Shown here piece after piece: positions 4,601-55,072 of a DNA stretch of 55,072 nucleotides. Each line of letters starts with the position of its first letter. Positions within the stretch are counted from its first letter, which is position 1. The stretch is taken from the IMG/VR virus record IMGVR_UViG_3300025410_000023, positions 1 through 55,072 of that record. One strand, 5' to 3'. The notes under the pieces were generated by a model, which was not told the origin of the DNA, did no database searches, and was given only the letters and a program-made list of their open reading frames with translations. A program made the translations under genes and the position numbers. Source of the stretch: a virus.

Positions 4601-5842
4601 TACATAAATTGAGTTACTTGCATTTGTTCCTGTATTACTAGCTGTATCCATTACAACTAAATTTTGACCAATATAGGCACCACCGTTGCTTAATACCAGT
4701 GTACCATTTTTACCGGTACTAGCACGAGTATTTCCATCAATCCAAACATTTCGATTAACATACAAACCACCAGCCTGAATGCTAACTGCCGAGCTACTGG
4801 TTGATCCACTGCTGGTAGGAGTATTTGAGCCTGTGACAATGACATTACCAGCACCAGTTGGTTGTAGTTTGATATTGATATCAGAAGCACTACCGTGTGT
4901 ACCTAAAATTACACCAGTGCCGGCATTTGAACCAGTAACAGTCAAATAGTTACTACCGCCGCCGACTACAGCAAAACCAGTGGTATTACCTACACTAGCA
5001 CTCTGTCCCAAGTTAAATGTAATATTACCAGTACCGCCTGAACCTACTACTAATCCTACTCCAGCCTCGCCACCTGCACGAATAACACCGTTTCCGCCAG
5101 TAGCTCCACCAAATACATTAACATAGTTAGGACTATTAGCACCTAGTGTAGATGTTCCGCCAACCCATAAATCTTGTCCAATGCCTGTTCCACCTACTAC
5201 TTGCAAAGCACCAGTTTGTGTTGTAGTAGCATTTGTGGAATCATTAGCTAAAACTTTCTTTGTAAATATTGCACCACCTGCTACAGTCAATGCTGGTGCA
5301 GGATCTGTTATATCTCCTGTACCTTGAACCTGTAAATCAGCACCTGTATAAACTGTACCAGTAGTTTCGTCTATAGTAATTGCTACTTTAGTAGTTCCAC
5401 TACCATTTTGAGAAAAAACTCTCAATTGATTTGCGGCATCAACATCAATATTCCAGGTGCTGTTTGATTGACCTGTTAATCCACCAATTCCTGCATATCC
5501 TAGTACAAGTTGTCCACCTTCACTTTGTCCAGCGGCATTAATAGTAACATAATTGCTAGCAGAAATAAATCCTGTAGCTGTTGTATTACCAGTTAATGCT
5601 TCAATTGTAAAACTACCGTTGCCGACATTAACATCGCCGGCAACGTTTAAAATATTTTGTAGATTTGAAGGACCGTATATGGTAGCAGTTGACGCTAACA
5701 TTAGGTCTTTAGCAAACGCGGCTGCCCCGTTTACTTGTAAAATTCCAGTATTACCGGTAGATGTTGTAGCAGGGTTTGTGATTCCTTGAACTACTAGACC
5801 TGCCTTAACAATAAAATCTTGAGTGAGTGATGTTAGTGCCAT
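1616..5842 (-). CDS. Large tail-fibre-like protein (1408 aa) with about 14 GG-type repeats
   Basis: The protein starts MALTSLTQDFIVKAGLVVQG, shared with the 174-aa protein. Through its length it carries about 14 copies of a loose motif of the form G(A/S)LxVxGGVGIxxDLxVxG, for example TGALQVVGGTGIGQDLWVGG, SGALIVSGGVGIDGNVYVNG and LGGVGIAKDLYVGT. Such arrays are typical of beta-structured fibre shafts of marine T4-like phages. The last about 110 residues (AKYIVQI, GVITNNGELGTF) match the C-terminus of the neighbouring 266-aa protein, so a shared C-terminal domain is likely. Composition is very rich in Thr, Ser, Gly, Ala and Val. GGGAAA before the ATG is the ribosome binding site. A distal-tail or fibre role in host contact is inferred. 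Confidence 0.8.
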   Translation of the reverse strand: MALTSLTQDFIVKAGLVVQGITNPATTSTGNTGILQVNGAAAFAKDLMLASTATIYGPSNLQNILNVAGDVNVGNGSFTIEALTGNTTATGFISASNYVTINAAGQSEGGQLVLGYAGIGGLTGQSNSTWNIDVDAANQLRVFSQNGSGTTKVAITIDETTGTVYTGADLQVQGTGDITDPAPALTVAGGAIFTKKVLANDSTNATTTQTGALQVVGGTGIGQDLWVGGTSTLGANSPNYVNVFGGATGGNGVIRAGGEAGVGLVVGSGGTGNITFNLGQSASVGNTTGFAVVGGGSNYLTVTGSNAGTGVILGTHGSASDINIKLQPTGAGNVIVTGSNTPTSSGSTSSSAVSIQAGGLYVNRNVWIDGNTRASTGKNGTLVLSNGGAYIGQNLVVMDTASNTGTNASNSIYVAGGVGIDGGLSVSGEAVFKNDVWFQGATTYVSSTNTVYTDNLIELHVPPTGVDGQWTVDDGKDIGIRFHYYNGQDLNAAFVLADDTKYFEFYSNGTETTSTGVFVGETYATLKAGSMLLVDTTVSTDYQSGALIVSGGVGIDGNVYVNGKVSSTYLQATDLNIPGGIVFSDSQGNLTNVGGMTYNSGTNILTANVTTATNLRGGAIGQIPIQNADGSTTFIPAGTADSQVLTWVAGATTATWQSASGTTVGNSSEAANLSGGAQYEVPYQIATSSTSFDSNFEWHYDNYYLQLNGNLQLYGVNTNAPGNADTQIVATPGLGIELYSNSTGGYSQLDYAGNTLVVVNSTGAILSTQGGDSTLTLDNSGNLTLGGVSNSSAVFTAPYVDPTNLSTNEVSYYNGSYLVGSSNLTFDGTTLSVTSFKDTALVTLGGVVYNTDGSGTLGDSSGLTYNGAGTLTVGTSLNISGVAGDITMTGGSLTGVYNVDMSTYNGTLTLGASGSVVLNYGNTYTVPYINGSNQLVDDTTFTYNPTSGYGSTGLMEVTNIEVTGAQNASGTDAALRVANGGLYVAVGTIINGSGDVGAGPALDVPNGGANVGLALHFGTQLSGGAGVSGSQGNTSADVSITGGAYFGGDVWIASGTGADYSGNGSLAVDGGVSINQNITVFSTEPTLGGVNDLASIGTKGGAYIKKDLYVGTTATIGGDLAVTGNETITGFLSANGGATLSAATVTNALLVNSTSPTLGSASAGSIQTLGGVGIAKDLYVGTTATIGGDLNVNGTIFMQGVGLDTISSNTGTFVDVISTGTIYANKFIVSSTLDASLSSYGANLGSVSASIKTAGGIKALGNVAVGKILYTGMNDAGDVLGQEPINKTIDGVFITNSMQSGGTYNGFSGSTAKTIDTWDASVYTSAKYIVQIVDSGNIHTEEMMVIQDGISVYISQYGVITNNGELGTFDGSINSGNVVITFKPNNASSSMKVNVVRQSILTGEESYC
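2273..2527 (-). repeat. Internal near-identical repeat in the 1408-aa fibre gene
   Basis: Two copies of a segment of about 45 bp coding KDLYVGTTATIGGDL lie at about 2273-2317 and 2483-2527, offset by exactly 210 bp (70 codons). The DNA is nearly identical (cctacatataaatcttt in both), which suggests a fairly recent duplication within the repeat array. Confidence 0.7.
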
Positions 5843-15255: not shown

Positions 15256-16215
15256 TTAGATTGTATGAGATATACTTACTGTACCAGTTGTTGCTGTAGC
15301 AACATTCCATCCCGCCACTTGATTATTATCATAGGCAAAACTAGTGCCTTGCTGATATTGAACCAAATATGCTTTGTGTGCTGTTAGTTTTTCAACAAAG
15401 TATGTACTTCCGTTTACATCTGTAGCAATAATATTCATGTATCCTGCTGTTAATGTACTAGTTGTTGCTAGCTTACATTGTCCAACACCTTGTGATGTTT
15501 TTACAAGATAACGACGACTTGCTTCTTGTTTAACAATATCGTACTCAACTGCGCTAGAACCGCCATCTTTTACTTGTAAAAATGCGTTACCTTTAATTGC
15601 AGAACCATATTTTTCTAAAGTTTGCATTGTTGGAGTTGGTGCACCAGGACCTGTACCAACAACATTAGTATTGTTAAAACTTAGTGCTGGAATTGTGCCG
15701 TATCCGCTACCGTTAGCTGTTACATTAATTTGTTTTACACGATACTTAACGTGTGCTTGATTGTTACCGTCACCACCTTGAATTTCATATGTATCGGCCG
15801 CTACTGGAATTGTTGAGAAGCTACCACGATTAAATGGTACAATATTTTGTACTTCTTGCTGGCCTGAACCAACGTGTGTAATGTTAAATGTTGCGCCGCC
15901 GCCTAGACCTGTTAACAATGTTCCACCGTTAGTTGTTGTTGAATAGCTGTGACCTGATAGACCATTTGTAACATAAACACTTTCAACCTCCCAAATTACC
16001 TGAGCGGTTGCTTGTATGCCTGTTGGCTCATCTGGTGCCGGAATTACTAATACAGGTACGTGAGTTGCTGTTGAGCAAACTAAAATACTACCTAATTGAG
16101 TTGGATTAGCAATGCTTTCGATACCTTCTCCACCGATACCACTTGTATTACCTACGTGTTTAAATTGTTCATTATTTAGATTACCAAAAAATTTGGCTTT
16201 AATTGGACGTCCCAT
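15256..16215 (-). CDS. Virion structural protein next to the capsid gene (319 aa)
   Basis: Begins MGRPIKAKFFGNLNNEQFKH. It is rich in Gly, Thr, Val and Asn. It holds a segment VKQINVTANGSGYGTIPAL (about residues 157-175) of the same 'I..V.I.N.G.GY...P' type that appears several times in the 4301-aa protein. No transmembrane segment or catalytic motif is visible. The strong AGGAGAAAATAAA ribosome binding site suggests abundant synthesis. It lies directly downstream of gp23, from which it is separated by a terminator and a structured leader, and ends at its own terminator. It may be a head decoration, neck or fibre-associated protein; the sequence does not decide. Confidence 0.7.
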   Translation of the reverse strand: MGRPIKAKFFGNLNNEQFKHVGNTSGIGGEGIESIANPTQLGSILVCSTATHVPVLVIPAPDEPTGIQATAQVIWEVESVYVTNGLSGHSYSTTTNGGTLLTGLGGGATFNITHVGSGQQEVQNIVPFNRGSFSTIPVAADTYEIQGGDGNNQAHVKYRVKQINVTANGSGYGTIPALSFNNTNVVGTGPGAPTPTMQTLEKYGSAIKGNAFLQVKDGGSSAVEYDIVKQEASRRYLVKTSQGVGQCKLATTSTLTAGYMNIIATDVNGSTYFVEKLTAHKAYLVQYQQGTSFAYDNNQVAGWNVATATTGTVSISHTI

Positions 16216-16242
16216 TTTATTTTCTCCTTTAAGAATATGACA

Positions 16243-16291
16243 GTTCTATTGCCTACGCGGTAGGGACCGCATAAACCCCTTTCGGGCGAAC
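16243..16291 (-). promoter_or_regulatory. Structured 5' leader with mutually exclusive hairpins
   Basis: The 89-bp gap between the gp23 terminator and the 319-aa gene is much more G+C-rich than its surroundings. It can form a CCC-GAAA-GGG hairpin (16277-16286) and either of two overlapping 5-bp hairpins: CCTAC/GTAGG (16252-16264) or GCGGT/ACCGC (16257-16270). GTTC/GAAC (16288-16291 with 16243-16246) could close the whole element. The Shine-Dalgarno sequence lies 14-21 bases further on. Known riboswitch consensus sequences that I could recall do not match. Confidence 0.4.
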
Positions 16292-25741: not shown

Positions 25742-25939
25742 ATTGAAGAAGAAATTAAAAAAATTGACAATGAGTCAAAAGCCTTAAGAAAAGATATCTA
25801 TAAGTTAGCTTGGTTTATGCGCGGTTCTGTTAGTATAGAACAAGCATTTGGAATGGATATAGGAGACAGGAATATAGTCTCCGATTTAATAAAAGAAAAT
25901 TTAGAAACAACCAAAGAATCGGGCTTACCGTTCTTTTAA
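25712..25939 (+). CDS. Short conserved T4-like ORF downstream of gp26-type gene (75 aa)
   Basis: MRLLTLSLSEIEEEIKKIDNE continues with DIYKLAWFMRGSVSIEQAFG and ends LIKENLETTKESGLPFF. The combination LxWxMRG...IKENLETTKxSGLPFF is one I recognise from short ORFs of T4-like phages; the function is not established. The ATG overlaps the stop of the gp26-type gene (ATGA), giving translational coupling, and the frame is -1 relative to it, so the ORF may also be made as a C-terminal extension. It ends with a stop that overlaps the stop of the convergent gene. The layout resembles the second part of tail assembly chaperone pairs. Confidence 0.75.
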   Translation: MRLLTLSLSEIEEEIKKIDNESKALRKDIYKLAWFMRGSVSIEQAFGMDIGDRNIVSDLIKENLETTKESGLPFF

Positions 25940-26505
25940 ATACCTTTGTTTCTTAAACGTTGATCCATTGCCTGGATTGCTGCTTTTAATTGATCAACTT
26001 CTTGATCGTTTGAAGATCCTGCGTGAGAAACAGCAGGAGCACCTGCACCGCCTCCTGCTGTTGAGAATGATTGACCTGCTCTAGCTGTATCGTACCCACG
26101 TTTAAGTCCGCCTGCTAATGCACCCAATGGACTTGTAACTGCACCTACTGCTGAGGAAGCAACATCACCTACTCCACGTAACCCTGCACCTATACCTTGA
26201 CCAACACTGCCTATACCCTGTCCTACACCTTTAAGTCCAGTACCTACATTTTTGGCTAAATCACCAGTAGCTGTGGCAACATTACTTAATCCTGGTTGAA
26301 CTTTCTTTGCTAATTGTCCTGCATAGTTAGTAATAGCGGGAATATTCTGAGCCGCATTAGCCGCCCCTTTTTGTACAACATTGCTAACACTTTGAGCGCC
26401 TCGTCCTAAAGCACTTGCTCCAGCTTTCAAGGCATTACCTACGCCTGCTAGATTTAGCTCATTTACTTGATTTTGTTCGATAATAATTAATTCATTGATT
26501 TTCAT
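25936..26505 (-). CDS. Gly/Ala-rich protein of unknown function (189 aa)
   Basis: MKINELIIIEQNQVNELNL is followed by a long low-complexity, amphipathic Ala/Gly/Val stretch (GVGQGIGSVGQGIGAGLRGVG) and a short helical C-terminus (EVDQLKAAIQAMDQRLRNKGI). The MKINEL start recurs in small late proteins of marine T4-like phages, but I cannot name this one. It has its own perfect late promoter, so it is probably a virion or assembly protein. The Gly/Ala repeats could form a membrane-active or tape-like helix (inference). It converges with the 75-aa ORF, the two stop codons overlapping. Confidence 0.6.
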   Translation of the reverse strand: MKINELIIIEQNQVNELNLAGVGNALKAGASALGRGAQSVSNVVQKGAANAAQNIPAITNYAGQLAKKVQPGLSNVATATGDLAKNVGTGLKGVGQGIGSVGQGIGAGLRGVGDVASSAVGAVTSPLGALAGGLKRGYDTARAGQSFSTAGGGAGAPAVSHAGSSNDQEVDQLKAAIQAMDQRLRNKGI

Positions 26506-26532
26506 ACAGGAAGTCCCAAAGTGATATATTTT

Positions 26533-26540
26533 TATTTATA
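26533..26540 (-). promoter_or_regulatory. T4-type late promoter
   Basis: Perfect TATAAATA on the minus strand, 27 bp before the ATG of the Gly/Ala-rich protein gene. The hairpin AAGTGAAC/GTTCACTT lies just upstream of it. Confidence 0.7.
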
Positions 26541-26983
26541 TACTTAAAGTGAACTACGTTCACTTGCTTTATCGCTATCGCTCAAAGCAACTTATTTAAT
26601 GTTGATTACTACGAAGTAGTTTAAGTATTATCCAGATTCCTTGGTCACACTTCGCCCGCTCAAGGGCAAAAATGACATTATCCGAGTTCGAACAGTCACT
26701 TAGTGTTAGAGCAGTTACAGTGGCGGTTGACCGGTACCACGAGCTCCGTCTTCATTCAACGGCAGTTTAACTATATACACTAACATATAGGTAAACCCAG
26801 GGTTTTTCTCCCTTCCTTTTTTGCCTTTTTCTATTATTCAAACAACTAAACCACGGCGAATTTGTGATCTTGGTCCTGTCAAGGATACTAGTTGAGTACT
26901 CTTAGCGGCGAGAGGTTTCCGTCCCTGTGATCCAAGATCCAGGTCTAGGGCATCCGAAATTAGCTGATGCTTGCTGATACCGC
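26541..26983 (-). ncRNA. Unassigned structured non-coding element (strand inferred)
   Basis: This 443-bp stretch has no supported ORF and is richer in G+C than its neighbours. Read on the minus strand it can form many helices: GATCTTGG with CCAAGATC (about 60 bases apart, enclosing CTCT/AGAG), CTATAT/ATATAG, CCGT/ACGG, GAGC/GCTC enclosing GTGG/CCAC, GCCC/GGGC, ACTAC/GTAGT, GCTTT/AAAGC and AAGTGAAC/GTTCACTT. The loop of the CTATAT hairpin (TTAGTGT) is complementary to ACACTAA about 80 bases further on, a possible pseudoknot. It lies between a GIY-YIG-like gene and a late promoter, both on the minus strand. I found no tRNA cloverleaf, tmRNA tag, RNase P core or group I intron core. Confidence 0.5.
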
Positions 26984-27421
26984 TTATGAGCCTAATGTTT
27001 TCTTGATTATGTGCGAGCCATGTACACGGACTGATATTTGTCCATTATAGTAGTCTGTAGATTCTAATACTTTGCGGTCGAATTGTTCACGGGCCTCAAT
27101 GTAACTACATTCTGCTTTACTTTTACAGTAATATAATATCTCTCTACTAAAATTGTCTTTGCCTATTAGTGTAACATCTTTAGTTAGTTCGGGACTACTA
27201 CCGAAGTAGTCTTTCCAGTCACTATCTATTTTGCTACGAATTTTCTTCTTTTTCTTTGTACCGTTTTTTAATTTTATAGTTTTATAAGTGGTTTTAGAGA
27301 ATTTTGCTAATTTTTTGCCTATGTATTTTCTGTCATTGGTTAAGTTAGTAATAATGTAAACAAATCCTACACAATCTTCTGGTAATTCTTCAACTATTTG
27401 TCCTTGGTAAGTCCATTCCAT
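26984..27421 (-). CDS. GIY-YIG nuclease-like protein (145 aa)
   Basis: GFVYIITN (residues 19-26) and KYIGKK (32-37) give a GIY-YIG-type motif. They are followed by the pattern W(K)DYFGSSPEL...DNFSREILYYCKSKAECSYIEAREQ and a C-terminal YYNGQI, which I know from small GIY-YIG-like proteins of T4-like phages (Seg-like endonuclease relatives). Such proteins cut DNA at specific sites; whether this one is a free-standing homing nuclease or a resident repair-type enzyme cannot be told. The basic insertion KLKNGTKKKKKIRSK (about 51-65) may bind DNA. No strong Shine-Dalgarno is seen. It follows the gp46 cluster and precedes the structured non-coding element. Confidence 0.75.
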   Translation of the reverse strand: MEWTYQGQIVEELPEDCVGFVYIITNLTNDRKYIGKKLAKFSKTTYKTIKLKNGTKKKKKIRSKIDSDWKDYFGSSPELTKDVTLIGKDNFSREILYYCKSKAECSYIEAREQFDRKVLESTDYYNGQISVRVHGSHIIKKTLGS

Positions 27422-54389: not shown

Positions 54390-55072
54390 ATGTCAAATAT
54401 TAATCAATTACCAACGCTTAGTACTGCTACCAGTGAAACATATTTTATGGTGGTCGATAATAGATTGGCCAAACGTTTACCCGCATTTTCAGTTGGACAA
54501 GGACCACAAGGACCGACTGGTCCACAGGGTGCTCCTGGTATAGGTACAAATGGAGCAACAGGTCCAACAGGGCCAGTAAGCACAGTTCCGGGACCTACTG
54601 GACCAACTGGGCAAGGAGTAACTGGTCCCACTGGATCGCCGAGTAATGTACCAGGTCCCACTGGAGCAACTGGACCAACTGGACAAGGGGCAATTGGTCC
54701 CACCGGATCACCGAGTAATGTACCAGGTCCCACTGGAGCAACTGGAGCACAGGGTGCGACTGGCCCAAGTGGCGGTCCTCCTGGTCCACAAGGACCTACA
54801 GGACCTACTGGTATTGGAGCAACAGGACCCACAGGCGCAAGTTCAGTAGGCCCAACTGGTCCACTAGGCCCAACTGGCCCTCAAAGTAATGTTGCTGGTC
54901 CGACTGGTCCACAAGGGGTGTTGGGTCCAACTGGAGCTACTGGACCGGGTGTTGCGGCAGTATATGTACCTGCTAGTAGTACCAGCACAGGTGTAGTAGG
55001 AAATGTTGCCTATGACAGTAATTTTGTCTATATATGTGTTGCTCCTAACACCTGGCGCAGAGCTTTTGTATC
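54390..55072 (+). CDS. Collagen-like fibre protein (C-terminus cut off by window edge)
   Basis: [21 protein letters not shown] is a short phage-type N-terminal segment. From about residue 37 to 190 it carries Gly-X-Y triplets ([13 protein letters not shown] and many GPTGPTG), as in collagen-like phage fibres that form stable triple helices. Then comes [39 protein letters not shown], a module often seen in marine phage fibres. AAGGATAAAG precedes the ATG, 4 bp after the giant gene's stop. It is probably part of a fibre at the baseplate. Confidence 0.85.
54600..54743 (+). repeat. 72-bp tandem duplication in the collagen-like region
   Basis: Two units of 72 bp (54600-54671 and 54672-54743), each with gagtaatgtaccaggtccca, differ at only a few bases. 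One unit is 24 codons, eight Gly-X-Y triplets, and includes a GSPSNV interruption. Gain or loss of a unit would keep the triplet phase. Confidence 0.85.

What the first reader, a model, noticed from the sequence alone, without database searches (positions are those of the whole stretch)
26541..26983. A 443-bp structured, unassigned non-coding element between a GIY-YIG-like gene and a late promoter
In an otherwise tightly packed phage genome this stretch has no ORF, a higher G+C content and at least eight possible helices. These include an 8-bp long-range pairing (GATCTTGG/CCAAGATC) and a 7-bp loop-to-downstream pairing (TTAGTGT/ACACTAA) that could form a pseudoknot. Its 3' boundary is a perfect late promoter for the next gene, so it is not simply that gene's leader. 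Large ornate RNAs (GOLLD, ROOL) are known from phages, but I could not match this element to any known family.
Basis: partly seen in the sequence, partly recalled or inferred. Interest (0 to 1): 0.7.

Follow-up and report, generated by a model that had tools for sequence, protein, structure and literature searches.

The report
Large phage RNA with twin 7-mers
The unassigned stretch is a real, conserved RNA of about 440 bases found in freshwater T4-like phages and a few bacterial genomes; its first third is a known but neglected RNA family, its larger remainder is not described, and it carries two 7-base words that change together over evolution so that they always stay identical to each other.

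Summary
It is read from the minus strand. Its 5' third (26975-26840) is Rfam RF01718, Polynucleobacter-1 (107 bits, cut-off 37). The other ~290 nt match nothing in Rfam, yet are conserved and contiguous with RF01718 in many dozens of phage contigs. They show strong compensatory change and a G-U excess that marks RNA on the minus strand. Energy alone shows nothing (z = -0.8). So RF01718 as deposited is the 5' domain of a larger RNA. It lies after the gp47-gp46-segE operon of freshwater T4-like phages, also where segE is missing, and in a few Methylococcales genomes. At the same phage locus two other 5' domains, unknown to Rfam, share the 3' module. The striking feature is a pair of 7-mers (ACTC-X7 ... 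ATCT-X7, about 50 nt apart). They were identical in 160 of 160 class-1 and 84 of 89 class-2 elements despite many different X7 words; all 23 changes at one position hit both copies. Base pairing does not explain this. Most likely it is a trans-acting structural RNA; its function is inferred only.

The parts
26840..26975 (-). 5' domain = Rfam RF01718 Polynucleobacter-1 (model positions 1-141 of 141)
   Evidence: cmscan 107 bits, gathering 37, E 2.9e-22; alignment
26950..26970 (-). hairpin P1 (26970-26966 with 26954-26950)
   Evidence: 97-100% paired; two pairs covary beyond every tree-null value
26843..26894 (-). closing helix CAACUA/UAGUUG (26894-26889 with 26848-26843) around two hairpins
   Evidence: 98-100% paired, three pairs E~0 against the tree null
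26765..26796 (-). long hairpin (26796-26784 with 26777-26765); its loop enters pseudoknot 1
   Evidence: all 12 pairs counted show changes on both sides
   Evidence: 92-99% paired in 94 homologues; 99.3% paired, 4 of 6 pairs with two-sided changes
26727..26759 (-). pseudoknot 2 (loop-loop): 26759-26756 with 26730-26727
   Evidence: 26758-26728 TA 58 / CG 36, E~0; 94.6% paired, 3 of 4 pairs with two-sided changes
26709..26746 (-). central helices 26746-26743/26712-26709 and 26740-26737/26723-26720, carrying the near-invariant GGUACCGG..ACCGCC
   Evidence: 95.7% and 100% paired; column pairs 242/278 and 243/277 E~0
26677..26683 (-). X7 copy 1, GGATAAT, preceded by ACTC (26687-26684)
   Evidence: identical to copy 2 in 160/160 class-1 elements not preselected for identity; co-change on the tree
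26650..26671 (-). spacer hairpin between the copies (26671-26663 / 26657-26650), followed by GUGACC
   Evidence: alignments; weakest helix counted, 74% paired
26627..26633 (-). X7 copy 2, GGATAAT, preceded by ATCT (26637-26634); exact 3' edge of the conserved body
   Evidence: identity in the 30 nt before this edge averages 1.00 in close pairs, 0.79 in the 30 nt after it
26547..26586 (-). 3' tandem hairpins after a variable linker
   Evidence: terminal stem 26565-26547: six pairs covary, 98-100% paired
26533..26540 (-). T4-type late promoter octamer TATAAATA of the next gene, just outside the RNA
   Evidence: 3 in the window against 10.7 expected
26984..27421 (-). neighbour: SegE-type GIY-YIG protein, not an obligate partner
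   Evidence: Pfam PF19835; within 120 nt in 89 of 101 RNA-seeded loci, absent in 4; six loci around its relatives in cultured phages have no match to the 3' domain model

Best explanation
The element is a large non-coding RNA of about 430-440 nt in this phage, transcribed from the minus strand, made of a 5' RF01718 domain, a central pseudoknotted domain, a twin-site module (ACUC-X7, hairpin, AUCU-X7), a variable linker and two 3' hairpins. SHOWN by comparison: the RNA nature, strand, extent, both pseudoknots, and the strict coupling of the two X7 copies. INFERRED: it acts in trans as a discrete structural RNA rather than as a leader or terminator of one gene, because the neighbouring genes differ among carriers while the RNA stays. 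INFERRED, much weaker (about 0.35): the scaffold displays two copies of the same 7-nt word so that both engage one nucleic-acid partner, or one can stand in for the other. That partner would have to be specific to the element rather than the host, since one bacterial genome bin carries two such RNAs with different X7 words.
For: RF01718 hit. Contiguous conservation of the rest in loci found through the neighbouring protein and through the RNA's own 3' sequence: of 115 RNA-seeded loci with room upstream, 80 matches reach the RF01718 domain. 31 column pairs exceed a tree-based null at E<0.05, 21 of them in predicted helices. A second alignment gives 89.7% of cells paired against 37-49% when slid, covariation 0.486 against at most 0.110. 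G-U 11.1% against A-C 3.1% in helices indicates RNA and its strand. One copy in each long phage contig tested. A 3'-domain covariance model finds class-3 and bacterial RNAs, e.g. 64 bits in L128 and 99.5 bits in L203. Changing context: no segE in 4 of 101 loci, a gene of the opposite strand right after it in 24 of 103, an integrase, resolvase or a divergent small gene nearby in Methylococcales. X7 identity 160/160 and 84/89, double changes only at the X7 positions, different X7 in two RNAs of genome G090.
Against: No transcript is known. No partner was found: no complement or third copy of X7 clearly enriched within 3 kb or in the window; in the 86-kb contig G213 the word GGATGAT occurs only as the two copies themselves. 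In most phages the RNA still follows segE closely, so a 3'-UTR role is not excluded. The bacterial contigs seen by name come from metagenome-assembled genomes.
Confidence: 0.72

Rival explanations
1. A cis-acting 3' untranslated element or processing/stability signal of the gp47-gp46-segE operon, or a long leader of the late gene behind it.
For: In 89 of 101 loci it starts within 120 nt of segE; Weinberg 2010 (PMC2864571) lists Polynucleobacter-1 as 'y y ?' in its table, of which I take the second mark to be cis-regulation.
Against: Persists without segE, with other genes in between, and in bacteria beside a divergently read gene. No intrinsic terminator is called at its 3' end. The late promoter lies after it, so it is not in that mRNA.
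Confidence: 0.2
2. A guide-like RNA: the conserved body is a scaffold ending at X7 copy 2, X7 copy 1 is an internal guide, and copy 2 is the matching DNA site at the element's edge, so each must mirror the other.
For: Conservation stops exactly at the end of X7 copy 2. In genome G090 two contigs overlap by exactly 141 nt and part at that base, and the tail is shared between two RNAs whose bodies differ. The identical run is 7 nt, or 8 when the next base agrees.
Against: No associated nuclease or recombinase is constant; segE is dispensable. The phage locus is inherited in place. The variable linker may simply be unconstrained.
Confidence: 0.12
3. The two strands A-YYY-X7 lie side by side in parallel in the folded RNA and pair base to identical base (A-A, G-G, U-U, C-C, with C opposite U at the three YYY positions).
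For: Explains the coupling without any partner. Copy 1 always has CUC where copy 2 has UCU; tolerated exceptions include A opposite U at the last X7 base and U opposite A just upstream.
Against: No natural RNA precedent of this length known to me. Purine-purine and pyrimidine-pyrimidine pairs interchange at the same position (U-U, A-A, G-G at the last base), which is geometrically awkward.
Confidence: 0.1
4. Concerted evolution only: template switching between neighbouring short repeats copies one X7 over the other, with no functional link.
For: Short nearby direct repeats can be homogenised by recombination (general knowledge); changes in X7 are always double.
Against: Invariant differences directly at the edge (ACTC against ATCT) are never copied; identity holds from phages to bacterial loci with quite different X7 words.
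Confidence: 0.08
5. A DNA-level element such as an origin or recombination site, the helices being DNA hairpins.
For: The 3'-terminal hairpin shows almost no G-U intermediates.
Against: A 3.6-fold excess of G-U over A-C in helices on one strand, and two covarying pseudoknots.
Confidence: 0.07

Closest known systems
RF01718 Polynucleobacter-1 RNA (Weinberg et al. 2010, PMC2864571)
   Same: 26975-26840 scores 107 bits over the whole model; same freshwater setting
   Different: Rfam models 141 nt; here it is only the 5' domain of a contiguous ~440-nt RNA, mostly in T4-like phages. I found no later paper on it in the held library.
GOLLD and ROOL (large ornate phage RNAs, PMC12286853)
   Same: Large multi-pseudoknot phage RNA of unknown function; [quoted passage not shown]
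   Different: No Rfam match, smaller, not beside tRNA genes here (only a tRNA-Ser at 4911-5000); twin identical 7-mers. Whether it forms oligomers is untested.
IscB/TnpB omega RNAs and IS110 bridge RNAs
   Same: Scaffold RNA with a sharp boundary to variable sequence and a short matching word at the boundary (analogy from memory)
   Different: No such nuclease or recombinase gene is constant at the locus; no Rfam match
Group I introns
   Same: A few core-like words in the class-1 and class-3 5' domains suggested this to me (from memory)
   Different: No Rfam match at E<=5; no room for a P3 strand between the P7-like strand and the next hairpin

Membership tests
RF01718 Polynucleobacter-1 | covariance score above the curated cut-off over the full model | tested here: met
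   107 bits against 37, model 1-141
RF01718 Polynucleobacter-1 | family helices keep pairing across homologues | tested here: met
   94-100% paired in P1, CAACUA/UAGUUG and the GAUCAC hairpin, with covariation
RF01718 Polynucleobacter-1 | the RNA is the 141-nt unit that Rfam models | tested here: not met
   Conservation and covariation run on without a break for ~290 nt. The domain belongs to the family; the RNA is larger than the family.
GOLLD / ROOL | match to the Rfam covariance model | tested here: not met
   No hit at gathering score, nor at E<=5 in 26400-27100
GOLLD / ROOL | RNA-only homo-oligomeric complex | not testable with these tools
   needs native gel or cryo-EM
Group I or group II intron | catalytic-core match | tested here: not met
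   No Rfam intron hit at the RNA in classes 1-3
tmRNA | tRNA-like domain and tag | tested here: not met
   ARAGORN finds only a tRNA-Ser at 4911-5000; no Rfam hit
Guide RNA (omega/bridge type) | constant association with a nuclease or recombinase gene | tested here: not met
   segE missing in 4 of 101 loci and no constant nuclease or recombinase beside the bacterial copies

The most novel reading that the evidence does not exclude
A widespread class of phage and mobile-element RNA carries a 7-nt word twice and is under selection for the two copies to be identical to each other, whatever the word is. This is covariation by identity, not complementarity: either a guide-and-mirror-site arrangement, two sites for one element-specific strand, or a parallel-strand contact. 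Each would be a new principle for a natural RNA of this kind.
Probability: 0.35. Interest if true: 0.9.

Novelty: new variant of a known kind. Interest (0 to 1): 0.66.

Why it matters
RF01718 has stood since 2010 as a small Burkholderiales/freshwater motif of unclear role. Here it becomes the 5' domain of a large structured RNA of common lake phages, with interchangeable 5' domains on a shared 3' module. The twin 7-mers make the function directly testable: change one copy, then both. If identity itself is selected, covariation tools that look only for complementary pairs have been missing a class of RNA constraint.

Tried and rejected
Thermodynamic evidence: none. Group I intron idea: no Rfam support and no P3. 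Ribosome bypass between the two X7 words (each often reads sense codon + UAA/UGA): rejected, because in-frame stops lie close upstream in most elements and the spacing is not phase-conserved. Complement or third copy of X7 as partner: not clearly enriched within 3 kb, in the window, in nine phage contigs or around the bacterial RNAs. Partner in the freshwater-2 RNA of the same window: no complement seen. Phage records in INPHARED: no blastn hit for classes 1, 2 or 3; cultured relative Melnitz lacks RF01718. Viral relatives of the bacterial neighbour protein: none. Caution: and the class-1 pattern preselect identical or nearly identical X7 and must not be used as a test of identity; one search is the test. 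A covariance-model search without a model and wrong-length structure strings gave nothing.

Full report
What is there. The 443 bases between the SegE-type GIY-YIG gene (26984-27421, minus) and the late promoter of the next gene (26533-26540, minus) contain no gene-like ORF of 40 aa or more. Read from the minus strand, 26975-26840 is Rfam family RF01718, Polynucleobacter-1, over its full model (107 bits, cut-off 37, E 2.9e-22). The rest matches no Rfam family even at E<=5, apart from one chance hit far below its cut-off. RF01718 was described in a table as a Burkholderiales and freshwater motif of unclear class (PMC2864571); I found no other paper on it in the held library.

The known part is one third of the RNA. 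80 viral contigs were fetched with the SegE-like protein. In most of them RF01718-like sequence follows segE and continues without a break into a conserved ~290-nt 3' part. Of 115 such loci with room upstream, 80 matches reach the RF01718 domain. So the 5' and 3' parts find each other from either side.

It is RNA, on the minus strand. On 94 non-redundant full-length homologues I compared a G-test with a null that keeps the tree, the number of changes per column and the gaps. 31 column pairs exceed it at E<0.05, 21 of them in RNAalifold helices. Cells in helices are 79.8% Watson-Crick, 11.1% G-U and 3.1% A-C, which fits RNA from this strand. A separate MAFFT alignment of 23 diverse 3' domains with a structure named by me gave 89.7% of cells paired against 37-49% for slid partners, covariation 0.486 against at most 0.110, and 24 of 41 pairs with two-sided changes. 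The structure was derived from related sequences, so the slid control is somewhat generous on cells paired; the two-sided changes are the stronger evidence. Folding energy is uninformative (z -0.82).

TTAGTGT/ACACTAA is real: 92-99% paired with covariation and 99.3% paired in the second alignment. A second loop-loop pairing, 26759-26756 with 26730-26727, is equally supported. GATCTTGG/CCAAGATC is not: its pairs form in 25-90% of homologues without covariation.

Twin 7-mers. Four of the significant column pairs covary by identity, not complementarity, all at the same offset. Three of them are positions of a 7-nt word X7 that occurs twice: after ACTC at 26683-26677 and after ATCT at 26633-26627; the fourth lies just upstream and is looser. 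In class-1 elements matching a pattern that does not look at X7, the copies were identical in 160 of 160 with ten different words. In class 2, where the pattern fixed only copy 1, they were identical in 84 of 89, the five exceptions having A against T at the last base. The most diverged class-1 case, L042, also differs at the last base. On the tree, all 23 changes at the first X7 position hit both copies, as did 9 of 9 and 7 of 7 at two others. That is as strict as the best base pairs (17 of 17 and 24 of 25). The identical run is 7 nt, or 8 when the next base agrees (which requires at least 6). The three bases before X7 are CTC in copy 1 and TCT in copy 2 in all 94 aligned homologues. No third column of the RNA shows comparable covariation with the X7 columns. 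No complement or further copy is clearly enriched near the RNA or in the window; in the 86-kb contig G213 the word occurs only as the two copies.

Three 5' domains, one 3' module. Class 1 is RF01718 plus the central and 3' domain, as in the window. Class 3 (for example L097, L105, L128) keeps the central and 3' domain behind a different 5' domain. Class 2 (L010, L025, L060 and 82 pattern hits) is longer and shares only the twin-site module and 3' hairpins, with words ACATGAA and ACATAAA. Rfam finds nothing at the RNA in the class-2 and class-3 loci examined. A covariance model of the class-1 3' domain finds class 3 (52-64 bits in L128, L105 and L097) but not class 2 with significance.

Where it lives. 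Phage copies sit after gp47-gp46-segE. segE lies within 120 nt in 89 of 101 RNA-seeded loci and is absent in 4. After the RNA comes either a gene of the opposite strand (baseplate hub) or, often, a gene whose product starts with a shared leader such as MKINELIIIEQ or MRITELIIENNQIDE. Each long phage contig tested has one copy. In 201 genomes of the order of the Methylococcales bin, RF01718 is found in 3 and the 3' model in 4. These copies carry X7 words AGATGAA, ACTTAAA and ACAGAAA, again doubled. Four of them lie beside a divergent gene for a small protein with a similar leader, MRINELLDD. One genome bin, G090, holds two such RNAs with different X7 words, which speaks against one host-wide partner.

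Edge of the body. In 36 close pairs, identity in the last 30 nt up to the end of X7 copy 2 averages 1.00 and falls to 0.79 in the next 30 nt, to 0.40 in the sharpest case (its pattern requires identical X7 words within an element). In G090 two contigs overlap by exactly 141 nt and part at that base. So X7 copy 2 is the 3' edge of the conserved body; the 3' hairpins follow after a variable linker.

How it may work. Shown: a large pseudoknotted RNA, minus strand, with twin words kept identical. Inferred: a trans-acting structural RNA, because the RNA outlasts changes of neighbours. Speculative: both words engage one element-specific strand, or copy 1 mirrors a DNA site at copy 2. A parallel-strand contact, concerted evolution and binding by one protein were considered and rank lower.

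Noticed in passing
window 16213-16289 (-): A second known structured RNA, RF02980 freshwater-2 (57.8 bits, cut-off 49.9), apparently the leader of a gene that starts just behind it, after a strong hairpin-plus-T terminator.
   Followed up: partly
L010, L018, L023, L025, L051, L054, L060, L063, L072, L076 (between segE and the next gene): A different, longer conserved RNA (class 2) at the same locus, unknown to Rfam, with the same twin-site 3' module; 82 viral stretches match a pattern from it.
   Followed up: partly
L092, L097, L100, L105, L108, L128, L139, L142: A third 5' domain class with the class-1 central and 3' domain, unknown to Rfam; its 5' domain was not modelled.
   Followed up: partly
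window 25936-26505 (-) and the first gene after the RNA in many loci: Products share a short N-terminal leader (M[KR]IxELIxExQxxDE) followed by unrelated sequence, reminiscent of capsid-targeting sequences of T4 internal head proteins; possible variable injected cargo.
   Followed up: partly
L362, L363, L364, L202 (Methylococcales), about 130-180 nt upstream of the RNA, opposite strand: A conserved 106-138 aa protein (alignment A1) with a similar leader and PVKPFP...NPKxDP...NVFPE motifs, no Pfam hit for the two tested, no viral hit; further genomes of the order carry relatives of it.
   Followed up: partly
L435/L436 (G090 contigs C36 and C30): Two contigs overlap by exactly 141 nt and part at the last base of X7 copy 2, a likely branch point in the assembly.
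   Followed up: partly
window 26984-27421 (-): Relatives of this SegE GIY-YIG protein are annotated 'NAD synthetase' in PHROGs and many phage records, apparently a propagated misannotation.
   Followed up: no
window 54451-55072 (+): G+C 0.56 stretch encoding collagen-like Gly-X-Y repeats with a 72-bp tandem repeat, probably a tail fibre.
   Followed up: no
3'-terminal hairpin of the RNA, window 26565-26547 (-): Stem swaps whole base pairs among phages with almost no G-U intermediates, unlike the other helices.
   Followed up: no
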